Assembly (NCBI RefSeq): GCF_002234675.1
Contig: NC_019868.2
Span: 18,942,743-19,006,742, forward strand
Source: Oryzias latipes
Taxonomy: Eukaryota > Chordata > Actinopteri > Beloniformes > Adrianichthyidae
Reading direction: 5' to 3'
Length of the DNA: 64,000 nt
Under the pieces are notes generated by a model that saw nothing but the letters and a program-made list of their open reading frames with translations, searched no databases and was not told where the DNA came from. The position numbers were made by a program, and so were the translations under genes. This document shows, piece by piece, positions 7,611 to 42,927 of this stretch (positions are counted from its first letter, which is position 1; each line of letters starts with the position of its first letter).

Positions 7611-8740
7611 ATCGGTTTGAGTTCACCTGGGTTTTTTGTGTGTTCGGACTCATTGTCTGCATCCTGTTATTATTTAATAGCGTTCACAATTTTACATTCT
7701 TTTAAGAATCTGAACGAAAGAATGTTACCTAAAAGATCATTTTATATTAAAATCCATAAAATCATTCTTGCTGCATCAGATGCAAATTCTATTAAAGATG
7801 GTAATTCCTGTTGGTTTTTTTTTTTCTCTTCAATAAAATTTAGAACACTGATTACGCAAATGACAGTGTTTAGTAAAAGCAACAAGCCCACATATGACCG
7901 GGAAAACTCACCGTTTTGTAACAAAGCCATGTAAACACGTGAAGCTTGTAAACATTAAATCTCAAGGTTACAAAAGTCCTGAAAATCTGTGTCCGAATTC
8001 CCTCCCTAATCGATAACTATAACGGCATACAGTGCTGCACAATTTAGTGTTTATAGTTTTTAAAAGCAATTAAATGCGTGCGTGGTAGACCGGATAGCTT
8101 CTGATTTCCGGTTCCTGCAGCTTGACAAGAAAAACAGAATGGTGCAATACTGCCACCACCTGGTGTGGAGGTATTGCACCAACTGCTCCTGTCTTAAAAC
8201 TGATTTTCCAAAAAGCGAGCTGAGACACAACTTTTTATTTTTTGAAAGCAAAAACAAACAACAAAAAAAGAAAGCAATAAATAAATAAAAGGTATTTAAT
8301 AATAATCTAAAGTCTTACAGTTGCAACAGGTTTTTTTTTTTAAAAAAAGAAAGACATAAAACATAATCAAAAGTCCCAGCTAAAAAGAAAAAGTCGCTGT
8401 AAAGTTTACTTACCTTGACTCATGCCTTGCTGGAGTGAAAAATGGTTGAAAGAAAAAAAAAACAACAAGGAAAAAAACATATCAACTCCATTGTTTTATT
8501 GAGTTTCACAGGCAAGTCAAGTAACACAAGCAACAGTGAAAAGACAAAAGCATTTTTTTTTACAAAAGAAACAACAATATTTCACACACTCAAAGCGTCA
8601 CAGGAACAGGCTGGACTGCGAATAGTAGTCGCAAACTCCACAGCGCGAGGGGTATGAAAATAAATTTTAAAAAAAATTGATACCCCCCCCCCCCCTCCCT
8701 CTCCACCCCCTGGTGGTCTTGGGGTGTAAGGAAAATGAAG
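7611..8740. other. Gene-free stretch between the two-exon gene and the minisatellite
   Basis: No convincing coding frame is present. It holds several A-runs, an inverted repeat at 8141-8180 and a C13 run at about 8684. A short stretch at 8700-8722 (CCACCCCCTGGTGGTCTTGGGGTG) forms a rough palindrome abutting the minisatellite. Confidence 0.5.
8141..8180. repeat. 40-bp near-palindrome
   Basis: GGTGCAATAC at 8141-8150 and its exact reverse complement at 8171-8180 enclose a further partly complementary core (TGCCACCACC / TGGTGTGGAG). The arrangement could form a hairpin or mark the fold-back of a small DNA element. No target-site duplication is evident. Confidence 0.75.
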
Positions 8741-9989
8741 AGAGGATGGAAAGAGAAAAAAAAATAAAGTATTGTCTCGTGGGGTCACTTATGCCCGTTA
8801 AAACAGCGGAGGGAATGGGTTTCGTGCTGGCCACCGAGAAATGCATCGTGGGGTCACTTATGCCCTGTAACACAGCGGAGAGGATGGAAAGAGAAAAAAA
8901 AATAAAGTATTGTCTCGTGGGGTCACTTATGCCCGTTTAAACAGCGGAGGGAATGGGTTTCGTGCTGGCCACCGAGAAATGCATCGTGGGGTCACTTATG
9001 CCCTGTAACACAGCGGAGAGGATGGAAAGAGAAAAAAAAAATAAAGTATTGTCTCGTGGGGTCACTTATGCCCGTTAAAACAGCGGAGGGAATGGGTTTC
9101 GTGCTGGCCACCGAGAAATGCATCGTGGGGTCACTTATGCCCTGTAACACAGCGGAGAGGATGGAAAGAGAAAAAAAAAAATAAAGTATTGTCTCGTGGG
9201 GTCACTTATGCCCGTTTAAACAGCGGAGGGAATGGGTTTCGTGCTGGCCACCGAGAAATGCATCGTGGGGTCACTTATGCCCTGTAACACAGCGGAGAGG
9301 ATGGAAAGAGAAAAAAAAATAAAGTATTGTCTCGTGGGGTCACTTATGCCCGTTTAAACAGCGGAGGGAATGGGTTTCGTGCTGGCCACCGAGAAATGCA
9401 TCGTGGGGTCACTTATGCCCTGTAACACAGCGGAGAGGATGGAAAGAGAAAAAAAAATAAAGTATTGTCTCGTGGGGTCACTTATGCCCGTTTAAACAGC
9501 GGAGGGAATGGGTTTCGTGCTGGCCACCGAGAAATGCATCGTGGGGTCACTTATGCCCTGTAACACAGCGGAGAGGATGGAAAGAGAAAAAAAAAATAAA
9601 GTATTGTCTCGTGGGGTCACTTATGCCCGTTAAAACAGCGGAGGGAATGGGTTTCGTGCTGGCCACCGAGAAATGCATCGTGGGGTCACTTATGCCCTGT
9701 AACACAGCGGAGAGGATGGAAAGAGAAAAAAAAAATAAAGTATTGTCTCGTGGGGTCACTTATGCCCGTTTAAACAGCGGAGGGAATGGGTTTCGTGCTG
9801 GCCACCGAGAAATGCATCGTGGGGTCACTTATGCCCTGTAACACAGCGGAGAGGATGGAAAGAGAAAAAATAAATAAAGTATTGTCTCGTGGGGTCACTT
9901 ATGCCCGTTAAAACAGCGGAGGGAATGGGTTTCGTGCTGGCCACCGAGAAATGCATCGTGGGGTCACTTATGCCCTGTAACACAGCGGA
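8741..9989. repeat. Minisatellite, nine 138-140 bp units with internal dimer structure
   Basis: The word TATTGTCTCGTGG recurs with steps of 138-140 bp (starts near 8770, 8908, 9047, 9187, 9325, 9463, 9602, 9741, 9880). Each unit has two related halves of about 69 bp, each opening with CGTGGGGTCACTTATGCCC. The halves then differ: one has GTT(A/T)AAACAGCGGAGGGAATGG and the other TGTAACACAGCGGAGAGGATGG. Length differences between units arise in the A-run before TAAAG. Two unit variants, GTTAAAAC (A) and GTTTAAAC (B), follow the order A B A B B B A B A. Near-identity between units implies recent expansion or homogenisation. Reading frames that cross the array are shifted by the A-runs, so it is non-coding. 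Confidence 0.95.
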
Positions 9990-10755
9990 AGGAGTTACAT
10001 TTTTTGCAGGGGGGTCATGCAGACCCCAAAGCACATGCCAACCTAAGCGAGCGGAAGGGTTATACGGGAAGTTTCGTATTAACACTGTAGTTTGTTTTTA
10101 CTGTCTTGCCGTTTATTTGAATTTGGATCGTAATTTCTTTTTACCTTAACAAATTATGTGCCTTAATAGTAAAAAGAAAAAGATGATATCTCCTGATTTA
10201 AAAAAAAAGTGCATTTCCCAAACCTTTGCTGATTTATTTAAAACTTGTAAGAATGGCTGTAATACAATTAATAAAGAAAAGTACGTTTTTTTAAGACTTA
10301 TCCACAATGTCTGATTTGTTTTTTACTGTTCATCTGCACACAGATTCATTCATATCATGTTTATTATTCTCTTTCGGTGCAAAGCCAACCTGGCATTTCA
10401 CAAATCAAACATCCTTCTTCATAAACAGCATGGACACCCCTTCGAACAGCTGCAACCTCCCTTTTTTTTTTTTTTACTCAAATACAGGCTTCAATCCATC
10501 TTTGCGATTTAGAATCCTGATTGCTTTGTCATCGGGAGCTTTCAGTTGGGAACAATGGAAAATATGGCTAGGATTGTTAGCATATTTATTTGGACAAACG
10601 CTGTTACAAAAGTCTAAGGCACTAGAAGTCACAGCACATGCTCTGCTGAAGAGCATTACAAATGTAGGACAATGAAAATACAAAGAAACAGAAGGTCTTT
10701 CCGCTCAAACAAAGGTATTACGTTAAAAATACAAAAGGAAAAATGTGTTTTTGTC
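9990..10755. other. Gene-free stretch downstream of neurl1b
   Basis: I see no coding frame of substance. There is a T-run at about 10460-10473 and general AT-rich sequence. Part of it may belong to the neurl1b 3' UTR if a distal poly(A) site is used. Confidence 0.4.
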
Positions 10756-14200: not shown

Positions 14201-17200
14201 GACGATTTTTGTATCTGAATATCACTTTAACCCTTCAATAGCCTGCTCAACTAAACAGTAGAGCACCTTCAGAAAACATATTATTACAAACATTGATTGG
14301 CAATAAGCAGCAGGAAACACAAGTGTTAATTGATTTTGTCTTGGCTAGTTAGTTAAAGGGTTAAAGAGCGGCAGCCAGAAAATTGTTGGACACTTTTTAA
14401 TTACACTTCTTGGAAAAGTGCTTAACAAAAACAATTATTTTGGCTTATTTTTCTGATTTGTTCTCTGGAACACACCTTTAAAATCCTAATGCACAGCCGT
14501 CACATCATGCCAGAGTTTCTGTAGTTTCAACGGCTTATCAAAATAAGTCTGTCCGCTACTAGTCCTCCGTTGACTTCTAGTACATTCCTCTTCCACTATT
14601 TCGAGTTATCCTGGAGCAGCTGAGTGCACCGACCCCTCACTAAAGCTCCTGGGATCTCTGCTGTCTTAACCAAACAAGGCCATGGCTGCTGCCAGACGGA
14701 GGATAAACATCCCAGTGAGTATGAACGGAAAACGCAAAGAAGGTGATGGAAAGGAAGGCAGGAAAAAGGGGGACCGTTTCCAAAGCAAGGCCTAAAGCAG
14801 AACAAGCAGGTTCCTTTCTGTTTACCTCATTTGTCTCATTTGAGGAGATTACTTTTTTGGGGCTTTGGACCAACAGGTATTAGTTTTGATAAACAAATTA
14901 TTGATTAGTGAGCCTTCACAGAACATGCAACAAACGTTGATCTGTGCTGCTAAAGAGATTTGCTGTAAACGTTTCAGTTAAGCTGTGAATATGAAGGTTT
15001 GTCAAAGTTGTGGTCTGAACACACTGTCATGTATACAACTGAATTAAATATATCAATAAAATCTTCCAAAGTCCTTTACCTCATGGAATCAACTAAATAT
15101 ATTTTAAATAAGAATTGGCTACTAACAAAAAGATCAAAACTTATGAATGTATACACATTTCTATGCTTGCATAGGGATCCAGTCTGTTTAGGCCAGTTAG
15201 AAACCACTAACTGGCCAAACACACTGGTTAACTTTTAGAGCTCCTGTGTTTAAAGTGATTATGTGACGTAAAGAAAAGCAGCTTTAAGCCATCACATAAC
15301 ACTTTACATTAGTAATGTGTTGCATTTTGGCACTAAGCTGATAAATAAAGCGGCTTTTCTCTGCTGAATCCCATTAATCGAGTAACTGGTTATTTAGGCG
15401 TCGCCGATGACATATAAACAGGGTTAAAGGGTTAACAACTTTTAACATGCTAACTAGTTAGCAGAATAATTTAAAATGTTTTGTTGGCATAAAATCTGTG
15501 TCTTGACCACGCCCCTAACTTTCATTCCCAAATTTGACACAAACAAGGAATGTTGCAGTTCCACCTTTAACCACTGGAGGCAGGTTACAGAAAGTAGCAA
15601 ATCCCTATTGATTCCCATGTTAAACTGTCTGATTTTACTCCAAAAACAGTCTTGTTCCATGATATTTTTGTGTAATTTGCTTATAAATTGCTTGTGACAT
15701 TTTCTAATCATTGGCTGTATTCACTTTATTAGAACTCACATTTGCATAGTTTTTTTTTTGTCAGGTGGGCGGGCCCAGCAGAGCTTCAAACTTTGTTCTG
15801 CCCAAATGGCATTTTTATAATATTGGGTTTGGGTGGAGAAAATTCAAATTAACATGCCAGACCCACTCAAAGTCATCATTTTTGCTTTGCAGCGTCCCAT
15901 GGGGGATGTCAGAGATTACATAGTTCTAGGGTTGGAACTTAAACGTGTAACGTCTCAAGCATAAACTCTTCAGACTTAAGAACCTTCCACAAAAGGTATA
16001 GATTGTTAAAAAAAACGAATCCGACAATACATTTTGTACCTAGTAATATGACCTCCTGGGTGATGCCGTAGATATCTATGATGGCCCAGAGTGGACAGCC
16101 AATGCTGAGCCCACAGTGGAAGAGGATGGGCTCTCCATCATTGATGTTATAAAAAACACGCCCATGGCGATCAGCCCAGAAAGACAGAACATTGTCCTTC
16201 ACAGCCAGTCTCTCGGGCAGAGCCTTTGCCCAGTAACCAGGGCGTGTGACCAGGTCAGGGCAGGCATATTTAGGAATGTCAGCAGCCACCAAGTCATTGG
16301 GATCCAGACTGGTAAAGCCAAAGCGAAGGGCTCCACTCCAGCCATTGTGTACGCCGGTCAAGCGCAGACGTACCTGGATTTGAGGGGGAAAAAGTCTAGA
16401 ATTAGCGTTAATTCTTGTTTCTTTTACTCTTCCAGACATTTTTGGTAGTCAAGAAAGAAAGTAAACCTTTTCGTAAAGGTGGATGGGCCGATGGCTGAAA
16501 GTGATGCCATTGCAGAAGCTGTTCTTGCGAGTGGCGCGGCGAAGCTGCCCATCGAGCCTGATGTTCTTGCCTTTGGCACGCGGGTGAAAGCGAAGGGGCT
16601 CCAAGTTGGCACCGACCGGAAGAGCAGACGTTCTTCTCTCTACACCGGCCACACTGTTGGGAAGGGTGTAGTACTGCCTTGTGGCCACCAGACGGGGTTG
16701 AAGAGTCGCATCTAGAAGAGGGAAGAAACATCAGGTTAAAGCGAGGAGAAAAGAAAAGGCCGTTAATGATTCCTCTAAGCTGGAGAGGAAATGGCATGTG
16801 AACTGCAGGCCCCCGCTGGGATGTGACTCAAGCAGGATCAAAACTGCTGCGTTTGTGACACCAGCTGTTGGAAAAACAACATAATCAGGACTCCACTAGT
16901 TGTTGGCAGTGCGCTTATGGCAGCTAGCTCACAGTCTTTTACTTTTCCTCTGCCATTATAGATTTGACGCCTCTATGATCTTTAAAAAAGAAGCACTTTA
17001 AATAGCCTCTATAAGCCAGAAACTCACATTTGTCATGTAAAATAACTAAACGTGCTAAATAAGCCTTCATGCATACACAGACAAAACACCATGTGCATAC
17101 ATCACAAGAGAAAAAAAAACATCTGGCTTCAGGTCGATGCAAATATTTGCACCACTGGACAAGGGAGAACGTATACAAAACAGGGAAAGAAACTCAGCCT

Positions 17201-20168
17201 TAACTTGACAACAGACACAAGGGTCCATTATATTTATGGATGGTACACACCCTTGCCTACAGTATAAACAAGACCCAAATGGCCTCTTTGATTCCCCAAG
17301 TCTTCAGAGGAGGGGAATGAATCACACAGTACCTTGCATATAAAAGACCTAATCTTTGAAATAATCTCTGCAAGAGAATCCAGTGTCCTCCTTTGGCTAA
17401 AAGAGGCCCCGGTTTAACAGCATGAAGCAAATAAATGCTTAGTGTAAGGGAAATTCACATCATTCTGAAATTCCTTTCAGGTTTTTTCATGCTTATGGTA
17501 TAGACCTACTGAAATTTAAAGTTGGAGGACGGTAGATTTGCTGCCTTTGTTCCCCTGCAGGGCTCCAGTGATTACACTTGTGTTTAGAAATCTATGCAAT
17601 CTGGTGTAAAGACAATAACTCAGCGAAATGTTTCATAGTACATTTCCTAAAACAGACATTATCACTGATTATATTCTAAACTATGAAGCCGAGGCAAGAA
17701 CATCTGTAACATCTCAAGTGATTCTGCGGGCACCTCATCCTTTTCGTTCTTTGGGAATTCGGTATTTGAGATGTGCTTTGGGTAAACACGCACAAAAAAA
17801 ACAACATGCTGGGATTGAGCTTAAAGGGGTCAGGCTCAAATGCCTCGCTGGCTGAGTGACATACTGGGAATCTGCAGTTAAATCACCTCCAGTGTAGCCT
17901 GATATAGACACTCGTTTGCCGTTTTTAGATGAACGACACAGCTTTTACAGCTCACACTGCCCATGACAGATTCTTATCCAGTTTTTTTTTTTTTTGGTTT
18001 CAAAGAACATTTTTAAAAAATCCAATCATGTAAGTCTTTAAAAGTTTCACTTTCCTTTTTTCTACATTTATTTTGCCTTCTGTACAGTTGCAAGGGCACA
18101 TTACTCCCAAAAGTGGTGATTAAAAAAGGCCCATGAAATGGAATAATGTCTTCCAATGCCTCTCCCAACCCTTTACTTCTGAATCTGAGTCACAGGAGCA
18201 TAATACATCACAGATATTTTTCAACATCAATAGCAGCCCGGATAGCTTAAGGGAGAGATCAGCTGCTCCGTTTAAAGACGAGGCACTGACTGCCATGGGT
18301 ACAATAATAAACAAGCACTGACAAGACAATGACAATGAAAATGCTGTTTAAAATAAATGTTTAAAATGTCTGTGGCTTTTCAGATGGAAAACAAACAGAG
18401 ATTTTGTTAAGATAATGCAATATCTTTTGCCCCAGCTTCTTCCAGACTGTGTGGCACCTGAATGGTGCCACCTCACTTCTTCCATTCCTCGTTTTGTAAT
18501 GGCAACTGGAGGACGATATTCCAGATTCTGGTATTCCAATATGAATTACAGTAAATTGTTTGCTGAACACATCCTTTTTACTTCATATAAGGCCACTGTT
18601 AGTTTGGTGGTGCCAAACTAACAGTGGGACAATACTGTTATTTATAAAGTTACACCAATGACCTATGTCCTTTTTCATGATCTGTCCTTATAACTGTTGT
18701 TTCAACCTATTTAAAATGAAAAAATATGTTTTTTGCTTCAAAAAAGTGTCATGTTTTGTCTGTATGATCCAACTTAACTAACTTGAGCTGTTTTGGTTAA
18801 CAAAGAGGACAATCCATTCAATAAAGATTCAAACATAAAACATTATGCAATTAAATTTTACTTAATAACCCATGAATCAAATTCCCTTTGAAATATCTCT
18901 TAAATTTCCTTTAGGCAAAAGAAAGATCATTTATTTTGTTGTGTAAAAAAAAATGTAGTTTATAGTTTTGAATGGAAAAGGTTAAGGAAAATCCTTGTTT
19001 AATTGTATTGAAACAAAATATATTGGTAGCTCTGAACATTACCAAAGTATTCTAGCAAAATGCTTCTTTCTACAGGATAGTAGGGCATGGGGGTTCCCCA
19101 AAATCTACATTTCAATCATTTTAAGAATTTCTTTGATTTAGGAAATTCTGGATCATCACTTCTAGTTTGTTACTTTTTGTAGCAAAACAAAGCTTAAAAC
19201 CCAAAGTTCATTTATTCCCTAGGACTAAATTAATAAAAGAAAAATCGGTGGAAATCATTAAGAGGAAAATAAAATCTAAGTTATGAAGCAGATATTGGCT
19301 GTGATGGTGAACAAATTAAGCTCAATCACTCTGAACACAGTATATTGATTACTTCAAATATTTAAAGTAAAAACTATTTAAATTGTCAAAATATGGTCAC
19401 AATGTTTACCCCAAACTTAATTTTCTACTTTTGATAGAAAACCCCATGTCTAGGTGTAAACCAAAAACCTCCAATACTTAAAGATCAGTCTTAAGAAAAT
19501 GTAGAAACCACATCTTTCCACAGCTAAAGCCGGTGGGCGTGCAAGTGTGACAAATATTATTCAAAGATGAACTGATGATGAAGTAATGGGCTCTGTGTGA
19601 CATGACAAAGTGGTTCCGACTGAGGTATTCTGAAAACTCATAACCAGAAAGATCAGGGCTGACAAATCAAACACAATTCCAGAATGACAAATCCCACATA
19701 TTAGGAGAGTTTTTATGTTTTCACCGAAAGGTTATATGTCTAGTGTGTAATTTAAAGTTCTAGTTTGGGATTTGTCTTCAAACTGGTTAATGTTGTGTAT
19801 AAATGAGCAAAAAGAGGCCAGATCTTAGCAGGAGAAAGGCTAAATGAAAGAGGAGCATCAACAAATCCTTTGCTGAGGTTCTGATGTTTATTTTGGCTTT
19901 TTTTTTATTCTAGGAAACCAAACGATTATTTAAAAGGGTTTCTCGGATGCATATCGATAATGATGAATGAAAAAAAGTGGATGTGTGTGGAGCAGCTTTC
20001 CTGGGAATCACGCGTCGCTCTTGCGTGATGATGGGGAGCGCGTCCCCGCACGCTGAGCCACAACCGAACCATCAATGCCGGTTGGAGCTATAAGCAAAAT
20101 GACAATAATAGTATAAAAAACCGAATGCAAGTCTCACCAATTAGTGGCTTAGGTGTCGTATTCCCCAT
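10964..20168 (-). CDS. neurl1b: neurl1b, neuralized-type E3 ubiquitin-protein ligase 1B
   Basis: Six coding exons give 1719 nt and 572 residues (human NEURL1B is about 555). Every junction is GT/AG and all phases agree. The order is an N-terminal [10 protein letters not shown] (Gly2 could be myristoylated), NHR1 at about residues 50-203, a linker, NHR2 at about 297-448, a Ser-rich linker with DDSDSD and SSSASESSL, and a C3HC4 RING at residues 520-559 ending in KDVIKTYRP. In the family the NHR domains bind Notch ligands and the RING transfers ubiquitin, driving Delta endocytosis and Notch signalling at the membrane and endosomes. Retention of [15 protein letters not shown] and of the RING separates it from neurl4 and neurl2. 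Neighbourhood with dusp1 and ergic1 matches human 5q35. A distal alternative first exon may lie at 37917-38013. Confidence 0.96.
11554..11679 (-). CDS. neurl1b: neurl1b exon 5, Ser-rich linker
   Basis: Residues 449-490. [19 protein letters not shown] is followed by [20 protein letters not shown], nearly the same as the human linker between NHR2 and RING. It is phase 1 at both ends. Confidence 0.93.
12370..13104 (-). CDS. neurl1b: neurl1b exon 4, linker and NHR2
   Basis: Residues 204-448. A Ser/Asn-rich linker is followed by NHR2 from [17 protein letters not shown] through [19 protein letters not shown] and [16 protein letters not shown] to [18 protein letters not shown]. This one large exon of 735 nt carries the whole second repeat. 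It ends in phase 1. Confidence 0.95.
13242..13325 (+). repeat. Fish tail-type SINE-like repeat, copy 1
   Basis: ATTCATTCATC...CCCTTTCGGGGTCACGGGGCTG followed by CCGGAGCCTATCCCGGCC is a phrase seen repeatedly in teleost genomes. Related copies occur here at 22006-22132 (minus) and 33203-33330 (plus). It lies in the neurl1b intron between exons 3 and 4. Confidence 0.75.
13735..14105 (+). mobile_element. Possible LTR fragment in neurl1b intron 3
   Basis: The block contains CTACATCTCCCAGCAACCCC, then a pyrimidine-rich series of CCTGACC/CTGCCTGCC phrases. This wording resembles the solo LTRs of teleost gypsy-like elements. No target-site duplication, primer-binding site or internal region can be seen, so a decayed fragment is the most that can be claimed. 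Confidence 0.35.
14106..16039. other. neurl1b intron 3 interior
   Basis: No exon is seen. It holds a hairpin at 15191-15216. The stretch at about 15505-15625 (CCACGCCCCTAACTTTC..., AACCACTGGAGGCAGG) has the wording of a dispersed fish repeat but cannot be assigned. Confidence 0.4.
15191..15216. repeat. Perfect 10-bp hairpin
   Basis: GGCCAGTTAG, a six-base loop AAACCA, then CTAACTGGCC. GTTT and AAAC outside extend the pairing past a one-base bulge. It lies within neurl1b intron 3. Confidence 0.85.
16040..16373 (-). CDS. neurl1b: neurl1b exon 3, remainder of NHR1
   Basis: Residues 93-203. It contains [57 protein letters not shown] and [14 protein letters not shown], the highly conserved core of NHR1. 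It ends in phase 1. Confidence 0.96.
16467..16711 (-). CDS. neurl1b: neurl1b exon 2, start of NHR1
   Basis: Residues 11-92. It contains [34 protein letters not shown] and [11 protein letters not shown], the conserved opening of the first neuralized homology repeat. The acceptor is TTCTAG, the donor is GTTTAC, and it ends in phase 0. Confidence 0.95.
16712..20137. other. neurl1b intron 1 (proximal promoter form)
   Basis: The intron is 3.4 kb with GT/AG ends on the minus strand. No internal exon is recognised. Apart from the hairpin at 18593-18627 it is plain AT-rich sequence. Confidence 0.7.
18593..18627. repeat. Perfect 15-bp hairpin
   Basis: CCACTGTTAGTTTGG, a five-base loop TGGTG, then the exact reverse complement. 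No mismatch is present. It may be the fold-back end of a small DNA element or an RNA hairpin within the neurl1b intron. No miRNA family is recognised. Confidence 0.9.
20138..20168 (-). CDS. neurl1b: neurl1b coding exon 1
   Basis: It encodes residues 1-10, [10 protein letters not shown], plus one base (phase 1). The ATG is chosen because NEURL1/NEURL1B proteins begin MGN and the donor GTGAGA follows at 20137. The upstream region is CpG-containing. Confidence 0.9.
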
Positions 20169-30354: not shown

Positions 30355-31590
30355 AGAGAGCATCTCTGGATCTGCCCTAAGTTGGCTCAAGTCTTATCTG
30401 GAAGACAGGAAATATTTTGTTGAAATTGGGAGTTGTGTCTCAGACTACATGGGCTTGAATTGTGGTGTGCCCCAGGGATCGATCCTGGGACCCCTTCTGT
30501 TCAACCTCTACATGCTGCCACTAGGGCAGTTAATACGCAGTAATAACATATCTTATCACAACTATGCAGATGATACTCAGATCTATGTGTCACTGACAAC
30601 AGGTGAATATGGGCCAGTGGATTCTCTCAACCACTGCCTCCAACAGATCAGCGCGTGGATGCAGAACAACTTTCTCCAGCTAAACTCAGACAAGACCGAA
30701 GTTATTGTTTTTGGCCCACAGAAACAAAGAGAAATTGTCAGCAGCTACCTTCATTCTCTGTCTCTCAAACCCTCAAATCAAGTCAGAAATCTAGGGGTAA
30801 TCATGGACTCTGACCTGAACTTTAACAGCCATATCAAGTCAGTAACATCAGCGGCATTTTACCACCTGAAAAACATTGCCAAAATCAAAAACATAATCTC
30901 AAAGCGAGACCTGGAGATACTTATCCATGCATTTGTCTCCAGTAGGTTAGACTACTGTAACGGCCTGCTCACCGGCCTGTCCAAACGAGCTGTAAAACAG
31001 CTTCAGTACATCCAGAATGCTGCTGCTCGAGTCCTGACCAAAACCAGGAAGTATGATCACATTAGTCCTGTGCTCAGGTCTTTGCACTGGCTCCCTGTAC
31101 CTCAAAGAATAGACTTCAAAGCAGCTCTGCTTGTGTACAAGTCTCTCCATGGCCACGCACCAAAGTACATCTCTGACATGTTAGTGCCATATGAACCATC
31201 TCGTACTCTGAGGACCTCAGGGACCGGCCTCCTGTTGATTCCCAGAGTCAGAACTAAACAAGGGGAATCAGCGTTTCAATATTCTGCAGCTAAAATCTGG
31301 AACAGCCTCCCTGAAGGCGTAAGACAGGCCTCTTCTGTGTTCATGTTCAAATCTAGACTTAAAACATTTCTGTTTAGCCGTGTATATGACTGAAAGGTCC
31401 TATCTGCACCTTTCTTTCCTTCCTTTCTTTTTAAATCTTTTTTTTTTTCTTCCTTTTCTTTTAAAGTAAATTTTATGTTGATTATTTCTATGATGTATTG
31501 TGATTTTAATGCACTTTTCTGTTTTGTGAAGCACCTTGAATTACTTTGTGTACGAATTGTGCTAAACAAATAAACTTGCCTTGCCTTGCC
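30355..31590 (+). mobile_element. L2-clade LINE, 5'-truncated, RT C-terminal half
   Basis: An open frame of more than 330 codons runs from about 30358 (ISGSALSWLKSYLEDRKYF) through CGVPQGSILGPLLFNLYMLP and the catalytic YADDTQIY to the C-terminus KSRLKTFLFSRVYD and stop at 31391. The 3' tail ends in TTGCC repeats at 31574-31590, as is usual for L2 elements. The frame has no stop, so this copy is young compared with the other elements here, though truncated before the endonuclease. Confidence 0.92.
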
Positions 31591-33202
31591 TATGCGTAAT
31601 AATAGGCTCCGAAGATGCCATTCTCATGAAAGCTACATGGCAAAAAAGCCACAAACAGCTATGTTCAATAGGGGTCTGTTTTGTCTCAATGTCTAGTAAA
31701 GAAGAGCAGCAGGGATAGCAGACAGCTCCAGGTATCACTTAACACACCAGTCTTCTCAACCCCACTGTCTTTTCAAGTTGCTGTATCTGGAATAACCTAT
31801 TTGTAACTCTTGGTGTACTGTCAAATATGTTTCTATTACTCACCCAGCATGTCTCTTGGGGTTGAGGAACCAAACCCTTTTTTCCATAGAAGGCAAAAAA
31901 TTAAGTCTGGTTAGAAATTGCTCATCTGCACAAGTTAAGACATGTTTTGTTGCTGCTCAGGTCAATGCTGATTTCTTTGTTTCTGAAAACATTAAAATTT
32001 GGGATTTAAAAATTGGCTTTTTAAACTATTTGCCTAATGACTGCTTATTTGTGTTTATTATGTTGCAATGTCTACCTTCTTCTTCTTTGATACCTAATTT
32101 AAAACTCTACAAGTTGCGGTAAAGCAAATTGCCCTACGAGAGCAAAGTGTTCTTTTGAGGAATGGTAGAAACAAGGTGATTTTTTTTAAGTTAATGTGAA
32201 GCTTTTCCAATGTGGGCTTTGTAGTTAATGGTTTTTAATTGTAGAATGCTCATTACGCACAGAAAATAATGACATTTGGCTGCACCAGTCTGCATTTTTG
32301 GATCAGCTAAATGATGATCAAGGACTTTGTTTTCCAGCCGTGGCTTACCTTCAAAAACATCTATCAATTTTCAATACCAGTGGGGGGCACAATCCCTGCT
32401 TCTGACAGGGCAAGAGGCAGAGTTCAATCCAGACAGGTTGCCAGCCTATCAAACACCCACACAGGATTTATAAAAGCAATTTAAACAACTATGTGGGATC
32501 CAAAAGCAGGTGCAGTTCATGAAATATGAGAACAAACAAAAGCAACATTTACTTCTAAGTCAAAGGATCACGAAGAGCATAAGCTGACACTCTCATGGGG
32601 TAGAGGGTGGGGAGCGGCACAGAGGCCAAGCCTTTCATTCCAGAGCTTCTGGTGAATAGGTCGCTCATCAACTGTCATAAAAGACATTCACTGGCAGAGC
32701 TGCTTTAGGCAGTCCAGCAATAACATACTGTTCTTTATGGTGTCAAGGGCGATTTGAAGGCCTGTTTTCCTCATGACTAAATGAAGGCCAACAGGGTTCC
32801 CCTCAGTGTATGCAGCATGCCAACCAGCCAACTCGAAGAGGAAAGCTTTGCTCTTGTCTGATTTCTATTAAGCAGAGCAGAGTCTAAATAATTACTTTGT
32901 CATTTTTTACCCTTAAGTTTACCAACTAGGTTTCTTGACTAAGCCAGCCTGTCTGGTCCCCATGCTGCACCAATGTGAAATCTTGTTGTTAGTGTGCTGC
33001 ACATTTATGGTCTGTTTTCATCCGACAGGTTCTGATCCTCCTCCTTTTCTCTCTTATTAGGATTTGGTTGAGTGAACATATAAGAGGAAATAGCTGCCAT
33101 TCATCCTGGGTCTCCACTCACTGAGTATATTGAAGCTTTGTGCTTTAAAGCTACCTAATGCGTACATGCATCTTCACCTCATCTACTCTGACAAGGTCAG
33201 TG
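31591..33202. other. Gene-free stretch
   Basis: No exon is recognised. Around 32365-32460 there is a decayed phrase (GACAGGTTGCCAGCCTATC) like the end of the tail-type SINE-like family. Confidence 0.4.
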
Positions 33203-37916: not shown

Positions 37917-38013
37917 CTTCTTTGCTAAAATGTGTTTTCCTTTCCCTGCTGGAATGATGCAGTTTCCTGAAAATGGAAAAAATGGAAGACATTGAGCACT
38001 GGCTGCTTCCCAT
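37917..38013 (-). CDS. Candidate distal alternative first exon of neurl1b
   Basis: The minus-strand frame starts ATG at 38013 and reads MGSSQCSMSSIFSIFRKLHH, then SSRERKTHFSKE, ending one base into a codon (G) before a strong donor GTAAGC at 37916. The known exon 1 also starts Met-Gly and ends in phase 1 with G. Both would join exon 2 to give the same Asp codon. It follows a CpG-rich promoter-like block at 38184-38245. The mammalian NEURL1 locus uses alternative MG-type first exons, which supports the idea by analogy. No transcript evidence is available; it could be the first exon of some other gene. Confidence 0.35.
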
Positions 38014-38183
38014 GATGCTTTCCTGACAAACTGTTTTCTAGATCTGCTAGCAAAAATAAGATGTCTCCCTCGGGTGTGCTCTTCTCTAACATCTGTCAGT
38101 TTTTCTCACAAAAATCAACTCCCGCCTGAAATTTGAAATACTGTAAACAAAAACACGTGCCTGAGGTTACTTCATGATTTTGG

Positions 38184-38245
38184 CCAATCACCTGTTGACA
38201 GGGGCGGGCGTTAGGACGTCACCGCGGACCGTTGACGTTCACGTG
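38184..38245 (-). promoter_or_regulatory. CpG-rich promoter-like block
   Basis: Within 62 bases lie CCAAT (38184-38188), a GC box GGGGCGGGC (38201-38209), a CRE-like GACGTCA (38215-38221), TGACGTT (38233) and an E-box CACGTG (38240-38245), in otherwise AT-rich DNA. It lies 170 bases upstream of the Met-Gly exon on the minus strand. Confidence 0.5.
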
Positions 38246-39631
38246 ACCAGCATGCACGAGCCCGCAGGCTGGAGAGGAGAACGAGGCAGTTTTGATAAAC
38301 ATAAAAAGTTTTGATAAAACATAAAAAAGGTAATACTTTTAATTTGGAAAGGTTTCAACAAAAGTTATAATTAAAAAAATAAATCAAGTGTATTGTTTAA
38401 AGCAGGTTGAGAGGAGTTTACAACAACACATACATACTTTACTATTAAAAGCTTTTTACCTTTTATTGTCAATGTTAATCAAATACACATTAATGCAAGG
38501 AGATAACATTAATAAAAATAATATAGAATGAAGTAAAAATAAAATACATTGGGGGGGGGGGATGATCCACAAGTCCAACACTAACTTCAGAAGAGAAGAT
38601 ATAGTTTTGAATTTCAATCATCAAAACATTGACCAACAAATCAGACAAAACATTTTGTTAACGTCGTGTTCATGTTTGTTTTAGTGTCATATAGCAGGCC
38701 TTTTATTCAGTGGAAATATTCATCTGTTAAAATAAGCTGATATGACTGATGATAGACTATTGTAGCTTATCAGCACCATTATTTCTCATTTATATTTTCT
38801 CATAATAATACTTTTTCATGAAAAGTATTATTAGGTTACATTGAACAATATTTATATATATATATATATATATATATTTTACTAGTTTGTGCATCAGTTA
38901 AATCCTTGATCCTTGCTTTGTTATTTATTTACTCATTCATTCATTTATTTATTTTATTTTGGGGGGAAATTTCCTTGTGAGTTTTACTCTTATGTTGCCT
39001 GATTTCTAATAAGAATGACTTAAACAGAGTTATTTCAGCCATGTTTTCTTTTTAGGGAATTACTACAATTCTAATTAACGTCATTAATCAGAGATTTTTC
39101 ATGGTTTGAGCTCTTTAGAGCTCGAAGAGAACCTTGTGAGTTGAAAGATTGTAAAAACTAATTAAACTGATGTGTATGTGTTTTAATTTATTGATCAGAT
39201 GTGTTCAAGTCGTTACTCCATAAATAAGAAGTTCTTTCGCATCTCTTTGCCTTTGAGTTTCTCAAGCAGTTAATAAACAACTTCTAAAACCCACTGAAGA
39301 CTAAAAGGTTTCCAATAAGAGGGCAGAGGGCATATGGGCCTTTTCTTAGATTAAAACAATCAATATCTGAAGAAAAAGGCGTAGCTAAAGGACAGCAAAT
39401 GACGTTAATTCGTTTAGAAAAAAAGACTGGATCCAATAGGCTCAGTTGGTGACAGCCTCATTTGACATCTGCATGGTTATTCATTGACAAAACCTATCAG
39501 AAATCTACAGTTTGAGTCAGAAAATCTGACCAGCTGTGATCACGTCATTTCTGAGTGTGTTTGTTTAATGCAATGCAAGATGTGATAAGCTGCAGAAGAT
39601 ATACCTCAGGGTGATTCTATTGTGCAAATCC
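38246..39631. other. Gene-free AT-rich stretch
   Basis: It holds a G10 run near 38552 and a (TA)n tract near 38852-38876. No exon is recognised. Confidence 0.5.

Positions 39632-40024: not shown

Positions 40025-42927
<2,903 letters not shown>

What the first reader, a model, noticed from the sequence alone, without database searches (positions are those of the whole stretch)
37917..38245. Candidate distal promoter and alternative first exon of neurl1b, 18 kb upstream
A CpG-rich block with CCAAT, GC box, CRE-like and CACGTG motifs sits in an AT-rich desert. On its minus-strand side is an exon with a Met-Gly start, 32 codons and a strong GTAAGC donor. The exon ends one base (G) into a codon, exactly as the known neurl1b exon 1 does, so either can join exon 2. 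Two promoters would give NEURL1B forms with different N-termini, both MG and possibly myristoylated, and so different membrane targeting.
Basis: partly seen in the sequence, partly recalled or inferred. Interest (0 to 1): 0.7.

Follow-up and report, generated by a model that had tools for sequence, protein, structure and literature searches.

The report
Possible second start of neurl1b
A promoter-like patch of fish DNA far upstream of the Notch-pathway gene neurl1b may give that gene a second front end, as a sister gene in the same genome appears to have, but no RNA evidence was available and a non-coding transcript remains a serious rival.

Summary
The observation largely holds. A block unique in the genome carries E2F/CHR-like, CCAAT, GC-box, two CRE-like and two CACGTG motifs at 38.12-38.25 kb. 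Four of these classes fall within 160 bp nowhere else in the window, and in 2 of 200 shuffles. Downstream on the minus strand, an MG-starting frame of 32 codons ends at a strong AAG|GTAAGC donor, in the phase of the known neurl1b exon 1. Domain searches show no other gene between it and neurl1b, only a reverse-transcriptase fragment.

New support: the same scan upstream of a sister gene on C1 ranks two MG first exons on top, 16.4 kb apart, both in that phase.

Against: the frame holds one of the strongest acceptors of its strand (37966); another lies at 38268. With a donor at 38192 they fit a non-coding transcript that removes the MG start. An overlapping upstream ORF, uninformative codon usage and a peptide without a relative do not help.

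No transcripts or other fish genomes could be searched. Alternative neurl1b first exon: favoured, about 0.42. Interest moderate.

The parts
38120..38245 (.). Promoter-like motif cluster: E2F-like 38120, CHR-like 38132, CACGTG 38154 and 38240, CCAAT 38184, GC box 38202, CRE-like 38216 and 38233
   Evidence: only place in the window where CCAAT, GC box, CRE-like and CACGTG fall within 160 bp; 2 of 200 shuffles reach that
37917..38013 (-). Candidate coding part of an alternative first exon: MGSSQCSMSSIFSIFRKLHHSSRERKTHFSKE + G (phase 1); A at -3 and G at +4 of the ATG
   Evidence: peptide found only here in the genome
37911..37919 (-). Splice donor AAG|GTAAGC
   Evidence: score 11.2; 8 of 3,485 GTs on the strand as good or better, itself included
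37917..37966 (-). Rival: 50-nt internal exon with acceptor TTTTTTCCATTTTCAG|GAA; it would make the MG start intronic
   Evidence: only acceptor/donor pair above 13 and 11.2 on either strand; 1 such pair in 40 shuffles of the minus strand
38192..38268 (-). Rival: 77-nt upstream non-coding exon, acceptor score 13.25 at 38268, donor CAG|GTGATT (8.45) after 38192; stops in all three frames
37925..38092 (-). 55-codon ORF (MLEKST...) plus stop, overlapping the MG frame out of frame; weak start context
20138..20168 (-). Canonical neurl1b exon 1 coding part, [10 protein letters not shown] + G (phase 1)
16467..16711 (-). neurl1b exon 2 (acceptor score 10.9; low end approximate); accepts either first exon in frame

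Best explanation
The block is a distal promoter on the minus strand. Its start site is inferred at about 38.10-38.15 kb, just downstream of the motif cluster. It drives a first exon ending at 37917 that is spliced about 21 kb downstream to neurl1b exon 2 at 16711, replacing [10 protein letters not shown] by the 32-residue MGSSQC...FSKE. NEURL1B would then have two N-termini: a short proximal one, and a longer, more basic distal one with Gly2, Cys6 and six Lys/Arg. The longer one could be acylated and bind membrane differently. This would match the distal-plus-proximal MG first exons seen upstream of the paralogue on C1. Shown: motifs, frame, donor, phase, uniqueness, paralogue layout. Inferred: start site, splicing, translation, lipid addition, function.
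For: Motif cluster beyond chance. Strong donor. Of 91 other donors scoring 8 or more in the window (both strands), 2 have an MG start within 220 nt with a purine at -3, phase 1 and an open frame. Scanning the 47.3 kb upstream of exon 2 for MG + phase 1 + last base G + donor of 5.5 or more gave exactly 2 hits, the candidate (11.2) and canonical exon 1 (7.3); 180.7 kb of control strands gave 6, of which 2 had donors of 9.5 or more and none reached 11.2. Upstream of the C1 paralogue the two top hits of 3 are MGNNVTGVPGLQRGEHAGFQRLRNSQK (donor 12.4) and MGGQITRSALY (10.4), 16.4 kb apart, phase 1, both CpG-rich; its exon 2 opens after a phase-1 acceptor. No domain was found by Pfam on the minus strand from 20.3 to 45.1 kb, nor by PDB sequence search from 20.3 to 35.3 kb; neurl1b and dusp1 served as positive controls for Pfam.
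Against: Strong acceptor inside the frame (score 13.1; 7 of 3,871 AGs; 0.8% of 97-nt stretches on the strand hold one), better than the real acceptors of neurl1b exon 2 (10.9) and of exon 2 of the C1 and C15 paralogues (8.4 and 6.6); another at 38268. An overlapping out-of-frame ORF starts upstream at 38092. Raw codon score is that of intergenic DNA (52% of 7,745 open intergenic windows as high; below all 547 coding windows, which were the training set). Corrected for composition it is neutral (z 0.41; 29% of 335 intergenic windows as high, 14% of 21 coding windows as low), and canonical exon 1 does worse (z -1.3). The peptide has no relative in the genome, and its resemblance to the C1 distal peptide is not significant (0.054). 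The two C1 frames hold 6 and 4 CpG and no acceptor above 5.1; the candidate frame holds no CpG. The C15 paralogue showed no distal hit with a donor above 7.5 in 70 kb. In phase 0 the controls also gave 3 MG hits with donors of 9.5 or more, so such hits do occur by chance. No RNA data.
Confidence: 0.42

Rival explanations
1. The block starts, or lies inside, a non-coding multi-exon minus-strand transcript. An exon ending at 38192 (perhaps 38268-38192) is spliced over 225 bases to a 50-nt exon 37966-37917 and then to unknown exons. The MG start is intronic and no NEURL1B is made from it.
For: The pair 37966/37917 is the only acceptor-donor pair above 13 and 11.2 on either strand of the window; 1 such pair in 40 shuffles of the minus strand. 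Two of the seven strongest minus-strand acceptors (38268, 37966) lie about 300 bases apart. The donor after 38192 scores 8.45, among the best 30 of 3,485. All three frames of 38268-38192 hold stops.
Against: It leaves CCAAT in the intron and the GC box, CREs and one E-box in the exon, an unusual order (inference). It makes the MG frame, phase and start context coincidences (2 of 91 donors). No downstream partner exon was identified: the other strong pair nearer neurl1b, 32401-32349, lies in what looks like a decayed repeat (resemblance recalled).
Confidence: 0.28
2. The cluster is a regulatory element (enhancer, or a promoter firing on the plus strand or both ways) for neurl1b, dusp1 or an unknown RNA. 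The minus-strand exon is a chance donor plus a chance frame.
For: Read on the plus strand, the order CCAAT, GC box, CRE, E-box also fits a start near 38.27-38.30 kb (positions; inference). The block lies in the roughly 25 kb between neurl1b and dusp1.
Against: The plus-strand donor listed downstream of such a start is weak (5.4 at 38329). No protein domain passed its cut-off on the plus strand from 35.2 to 45.1 kb; one sub-threshold match was taken as chance. The strong minus-strand donor would be coincidence.
Confidence: 0.22
3. First exon of another, unrecognised protein-coding gene on the minus strand between dusp1 and neurl1b.
For: Short or unstructured proteins would escape domain searches; 17 kb of room.
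Against: No Pfam match in any minus-strand frame at 20.3-45.1 kb and no PDB sequence match at 20.3-35.3 kb, at E up to 0.1.
Confidence: 0.08

Closest known systems
neurl1a-type paralogue on C1 of the same genome (two MG first exons)
   Same: Two MG-starting first exons, distal longer (27 codons) and proximal short (11), both ending G in phase 1, 16.4 kb apart (17.8 kb here), upstream of the exon that opens the first Neuralized repeat after a phase-1 acceptor
   Different: Its frames hold CpGs and no strong internal acceptor; peptide sequences are not significantly alike. Its use as alternative promoters was not shown here either; resemblance to mammalian NEURL1 N-termini is recalled
KChIP (KCNIP) and DPP6/DPP10 genes: alternative promoters and first exons giving variable N-termini, in KChIPs with different lipid anchors (PMC3973911, passages seen)
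   Same: Alternative N-termini on a common core that change membrane association
   Different: Unrelated proteins; there the transcripts and localisation have been studied
NEURL1 membrane targeting by N-myristoylation (Koutelou 2008, seen only as cited in passages of PMC6506465)
   Same: MG start with a potential myristoylation signal in the same protein family
   Different: NEURL1, not NEURL1B
Drosophila Neuralized binding to phosphoinositides (Skwarek 2007, seen only as cited in passages of PMC2516928)
   Same: A Neuralized protein held at the membrane by lipid contact, which basic residues here could also favour
   Different: Fly protein; no sequence comparison was made

Membership tests
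Alternative first exon of neurl1b | Spliced reads joining it to neurl1b exon 2 | not testable with these tools
   No RNA data available
Alternative first exon of neurl1b | Same strand, upstream, no other gene between | tested here: met
   Domain level only: Pfam in all six frames at 20.3-45.1 kb gave no host gene, one reverse-transcriptase match on the plus strand and one sub-threshold match; PDB on the minus strand 20.3-35.3 kb none; controls
Alternative first exon of neurl1b | Open frame with start, phase 1, functional-looking donor | tested here: met
Alternative first exon of neurl1b | Coding signature or conservation of the peptide | tested here: inconclusive
   Codon test neutral and uninformative; no relative in own genome; 0.054 against the C1 distal peptide; no other fish genome reachable
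CpG/GC-box promoter | Cluster of promoter-proximal motifs beyond chance | tested here: met
CpG/GC-box promoter | Capped 5' ends, open chromatin | not testable with these tools
   No CAGE or ATAC data
Non-coding spliced transcript | Acceptor and donor pairs flanking exons without a long open frame | tested here: inconclusive
   38268-38192 closed in all frames; 37966-37917 has two open frames; no RNA
N-myristoylated protein | Gly2 with small residues at 3-4 and a tolerated residue at 6 | tested here: inconclusive
   M-G-S-S-Q-C read by eye against a recalled rule; no predictor or assay

The most novel reading that the evidence does not exclude
neurl1b in this fish has a second, distal promoter whose first exon gives NEURL1B a Src-like N-terminus (Gly2 for myristate, Cys6 for palmitate, a cluster of basic residues). 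The dual-promoter design would then be shared by both branches of the NEURL1 family, letting a CRE/E-box/NF-Y/E2F-type promoter switch membrane anchoring of a Notch-ligand ubiquitin ligase.
Probability: 0.3. Interest if true: 0.5.

Novelty: new member of a known kind. Interest (0 to 1): 0.36.

Why it matters
NEURL1 proteins ubiquitinate Notch ligands at the membrane, and how they reach the membrane bears on signalling. A second N-terminus under a different promoter would be a simple switch of that step, testable with one RT-PCR. If it is instead a non-coding transcript, it is a caution that an MG frame in the right phase can arise beside real splice sites.

Tried and rejected
Domain and PDB-sequence searches for another gene: minus strand 20.3-45.1 kb, no match (PDB 20.3-35.3 kb); plus strand 20.3-45.1 kb, one reverse-transcriptase match near 30.4 kb and one sub-threshold match. 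At 49-64 kb all six frames gave only sub-threshold matches (each repeated a frame already searched, and supplied the missing ones). Rfam at gathering scores and a tRNA scan (bacterial code): nothing. Bacterial promoter scan: not applicable to a fish, ignored. Codon-usage test: raw score looks intergenic; corrected for composition it is neutral; canonical exon 1 has z -1.3, and a presumed ergic1 exon has raw -9.1 but z 0.93; dropped as uninformative. Candidate exon 32401-32349 set aside as part of a decayed repeat (recalled resemblance). Peptide against the C1 proximal peptide: 0.022 by shuffling, resting on a few letters; C15 0.44, neurl1b exon 1 0.55. Papers: eight searches; the listings shown, several of them capped, held no description of alternative neurl1b first exons, and neurl1b + medaka + exon gave 0 papers. 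Passages only were seen of PMC6506465, PMC10741450, PMC6082886, PMC7385960, PMC3973911 and PMC2516928; those of PMC10741450, PMC6082886 and PMC7385960 led nowhere. Splice scores use weight tables recalled from memory, not trained on fish.

Full report
Setting. The window is C10:18,942,743-19,006,742 of a genome of 734 Mb in 25 contigs. That fits medaka, Oryzias latipes; the species name is my inference, no tool gave it. neurl1b lies on the minus strand at about 11-20.2 kb (two Neuralized repeats and a RING) and dusp1 on the minus strand at about 45-47 kb (DSPc). The gene names are my reading of those domains and translations. A sub-threshold ERGIC_N match near 60.4 kb on the plus strand and an exon read by eye near 60.8 kb hint at ergic1. 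The block in question lies in the roughly 25-kb gap between dusp1 and neurl1b exon 1.

Observation. All stated motifs are present, in kilobases of 28% and 33% GC. CCAAT, GC box, CRE-like and CACGTG classes fall within 160 bp at one place in the window; 2 of 200 shuffles reach this anywhere. CpG density is real but moderate: 13 per 200 bp, tied 9th to 11th among the window's CpG peaks. A 451-base query over the block matches only itself in the genome (that search skips very common words). The minus-strand frame 38013-37917 encodes MGSSQCSMSSIFSIFRKLHHSSRERKTHFSKE and ends one base into a codon at AAG|GTAAGC, a donor matched or beaten by 8 of 3,485 GTs on that strand, itself included. Canonical exon 1 is 20168-20138, [10 protein letters not shown] plus G, donor 7.3; exon 2 starts at 16711 with an acceptor of 10.9. 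Both first exons read through into exon 2 in frame.

Is it more than chance? In 40 shuffles of the strand no MG phase-1 frame of at least 90 nt with so strong a donor arose; with donors of 8 or more and a good start context the mean was 0.15. Among real donors of the window, the candidate left out, 2 of 91 scoring 8 or more, 3 of 253 scoring 6 or more and 8 of 664 scoring 4 or more have such a start upstream.

The paralogue. The Neuralized family search found 23 matches in the genome. On C1 and C15 the exon opening the first repeat follows an acceptor in phase 1. I scanned the 50 kb upstream of each with one rule: ATGGG, open frame, phase 1, last exon base G, donor of 5.5 or more. C1 gave 3 hits; the top two are MGNNVTGVPGLQRGEHAGFQRLRNSQK (donor 12.4) and MGGQITRSALY (10.4), 16.4 kb apart, both in CpG-dense DNA. 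C15 gave 3, the best MGGQMTKIPYY (9.8). From memory these resemble the known mammalian NEURL1 N-termini; no call confirmed that. The same rule on the 47.3 kb upstream of neurl1b exon 2 gave exactly two hits, the candidate and canonical exon 1, 17.8 kb apart. On 180.7 kb of control strands it gave 6 hits, 2 with donors of 9.5 or more and none at 11.2; in phase 0 the controls gave 3 hits at 9.5 or more, the sense strands none. So the layout proposed for neurl1b matches that of its C1 paralogue. The C15 paralogue showed no comparable distal exon in 70 kb: the hits there other than MGGQMTKIPYY have donors of 7.5, 6.3 and 5.6.

Evidence the other way. Inside the MG frame lies the acceptor TTTTTTCCATTTTCAG|GAA (first exon base 37966), one of 7 of 3,871 AGs that score so high and better than the acceptors of exon 2 in neurl1b (10.9), C1 (8.4) and C15 (6.6). 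With the donor at 37917 it forms a 50-nt exon, the only pair above both cut-offs on either strand; 40 shuffles of the minus strand gave one such pair. A second such acceptor lies at 38268, and a donor CAG|GTGATT after 38192; the 77 bases between hold stops in all frames. Read together these give a non-coding transcript from which the MG start is removed. An ORF of 55 codons starts at 38092, in a weak context, and overlaps the MG frame. Raw codon score is intergenic-like; corrected for composition it is neutral (z 0.41), but canonical exon 1 (-1.3) does worse, so the test decides nothing. The frame holds no CpG, unlike the two C1 frames (6 and 4). The peptide matches nothing else in the genome, and its similarity to the C1 distal peptide is reached by 5.4% of shuffles.

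Other genes. Pfam in all six frames from 20.3 to 45.1 kb found one family over its cut-off, a reverse transcriptase on the plus strand near 30.4 kb; PDB sequences gave nothing on the minus strand at 20.3-35.3 kb. A gene without a known domain cannot be excluded.

Mechanism and verdict. On the minus strand the order of motifs (CACGTG, two CRE-like sites, GC box, CCAAT, CACGTG, CHR-like, E2F-like, then the frame) suits a start near 38.10-38.15 kb, which would leave 37966 unused and make the MG exon the first exon. It also suits a plus-strand start near 38.28 kb. I favour the alternative neurl1b first exon (0.42) over a non-coding spliced transcript (0.28) and a regulatory element with chance splice signals (0.22). 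Lipid anchoring is inference: Gly2 and Cys6 are present and the peptide holds 6 Lys/Arg and 3 His against 2 acidic residues. NEURL1 membrane localisation through N-myristoylation is reported (Koutelou 2008, as cited in PMC6506465, passages seen). Alternative promoters that change N-terminal lipid anchors are known in KChIPs (PMC3973911, passages seen). Eight paper searches showed no description of this exon in the listings returned; open-access text only and several capped listings, so absence there is weak evidence.

Noticed in passing
C1:7672189 (L016) and C1:7688580 (L015): The paralogue on C1 appears to have two MG first exons 16.4 kb apart, a longer distal and a short proximal one, both in phase 1 and CpG-rich.
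   Followed up: partly
window 11000-61000: neurl1b and dusp1 are in tandem on the minus strand here, with ergic1 possibly on the plus strand (weak); from memory mammals have neurl1b in the opposite orientation to dusp1, which would mean an inversion.
   Followed up: no
window 30356-31390 (+): 345-codon open frame with a reverse-transcriptase domain match, E 1.2e-15: a fragment of a LINE-like element.
   Followed up: partly
window 8670-10097: Repeated open frames of near-identical sequence on both strands, an apparent long tandem array just downstream of neurl1b.
   Followed up: no
window 32349-32401 (-): Strong acceptor-donor pair (11.1/11.2) with all frames closed, inside what looks like a decayed repeat tail (resemblance recalled).
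   Followed up: partly
window 40031-40163: TA dinucleotide run of about 66 copies between dusp1 and the block.
   Followed up: no
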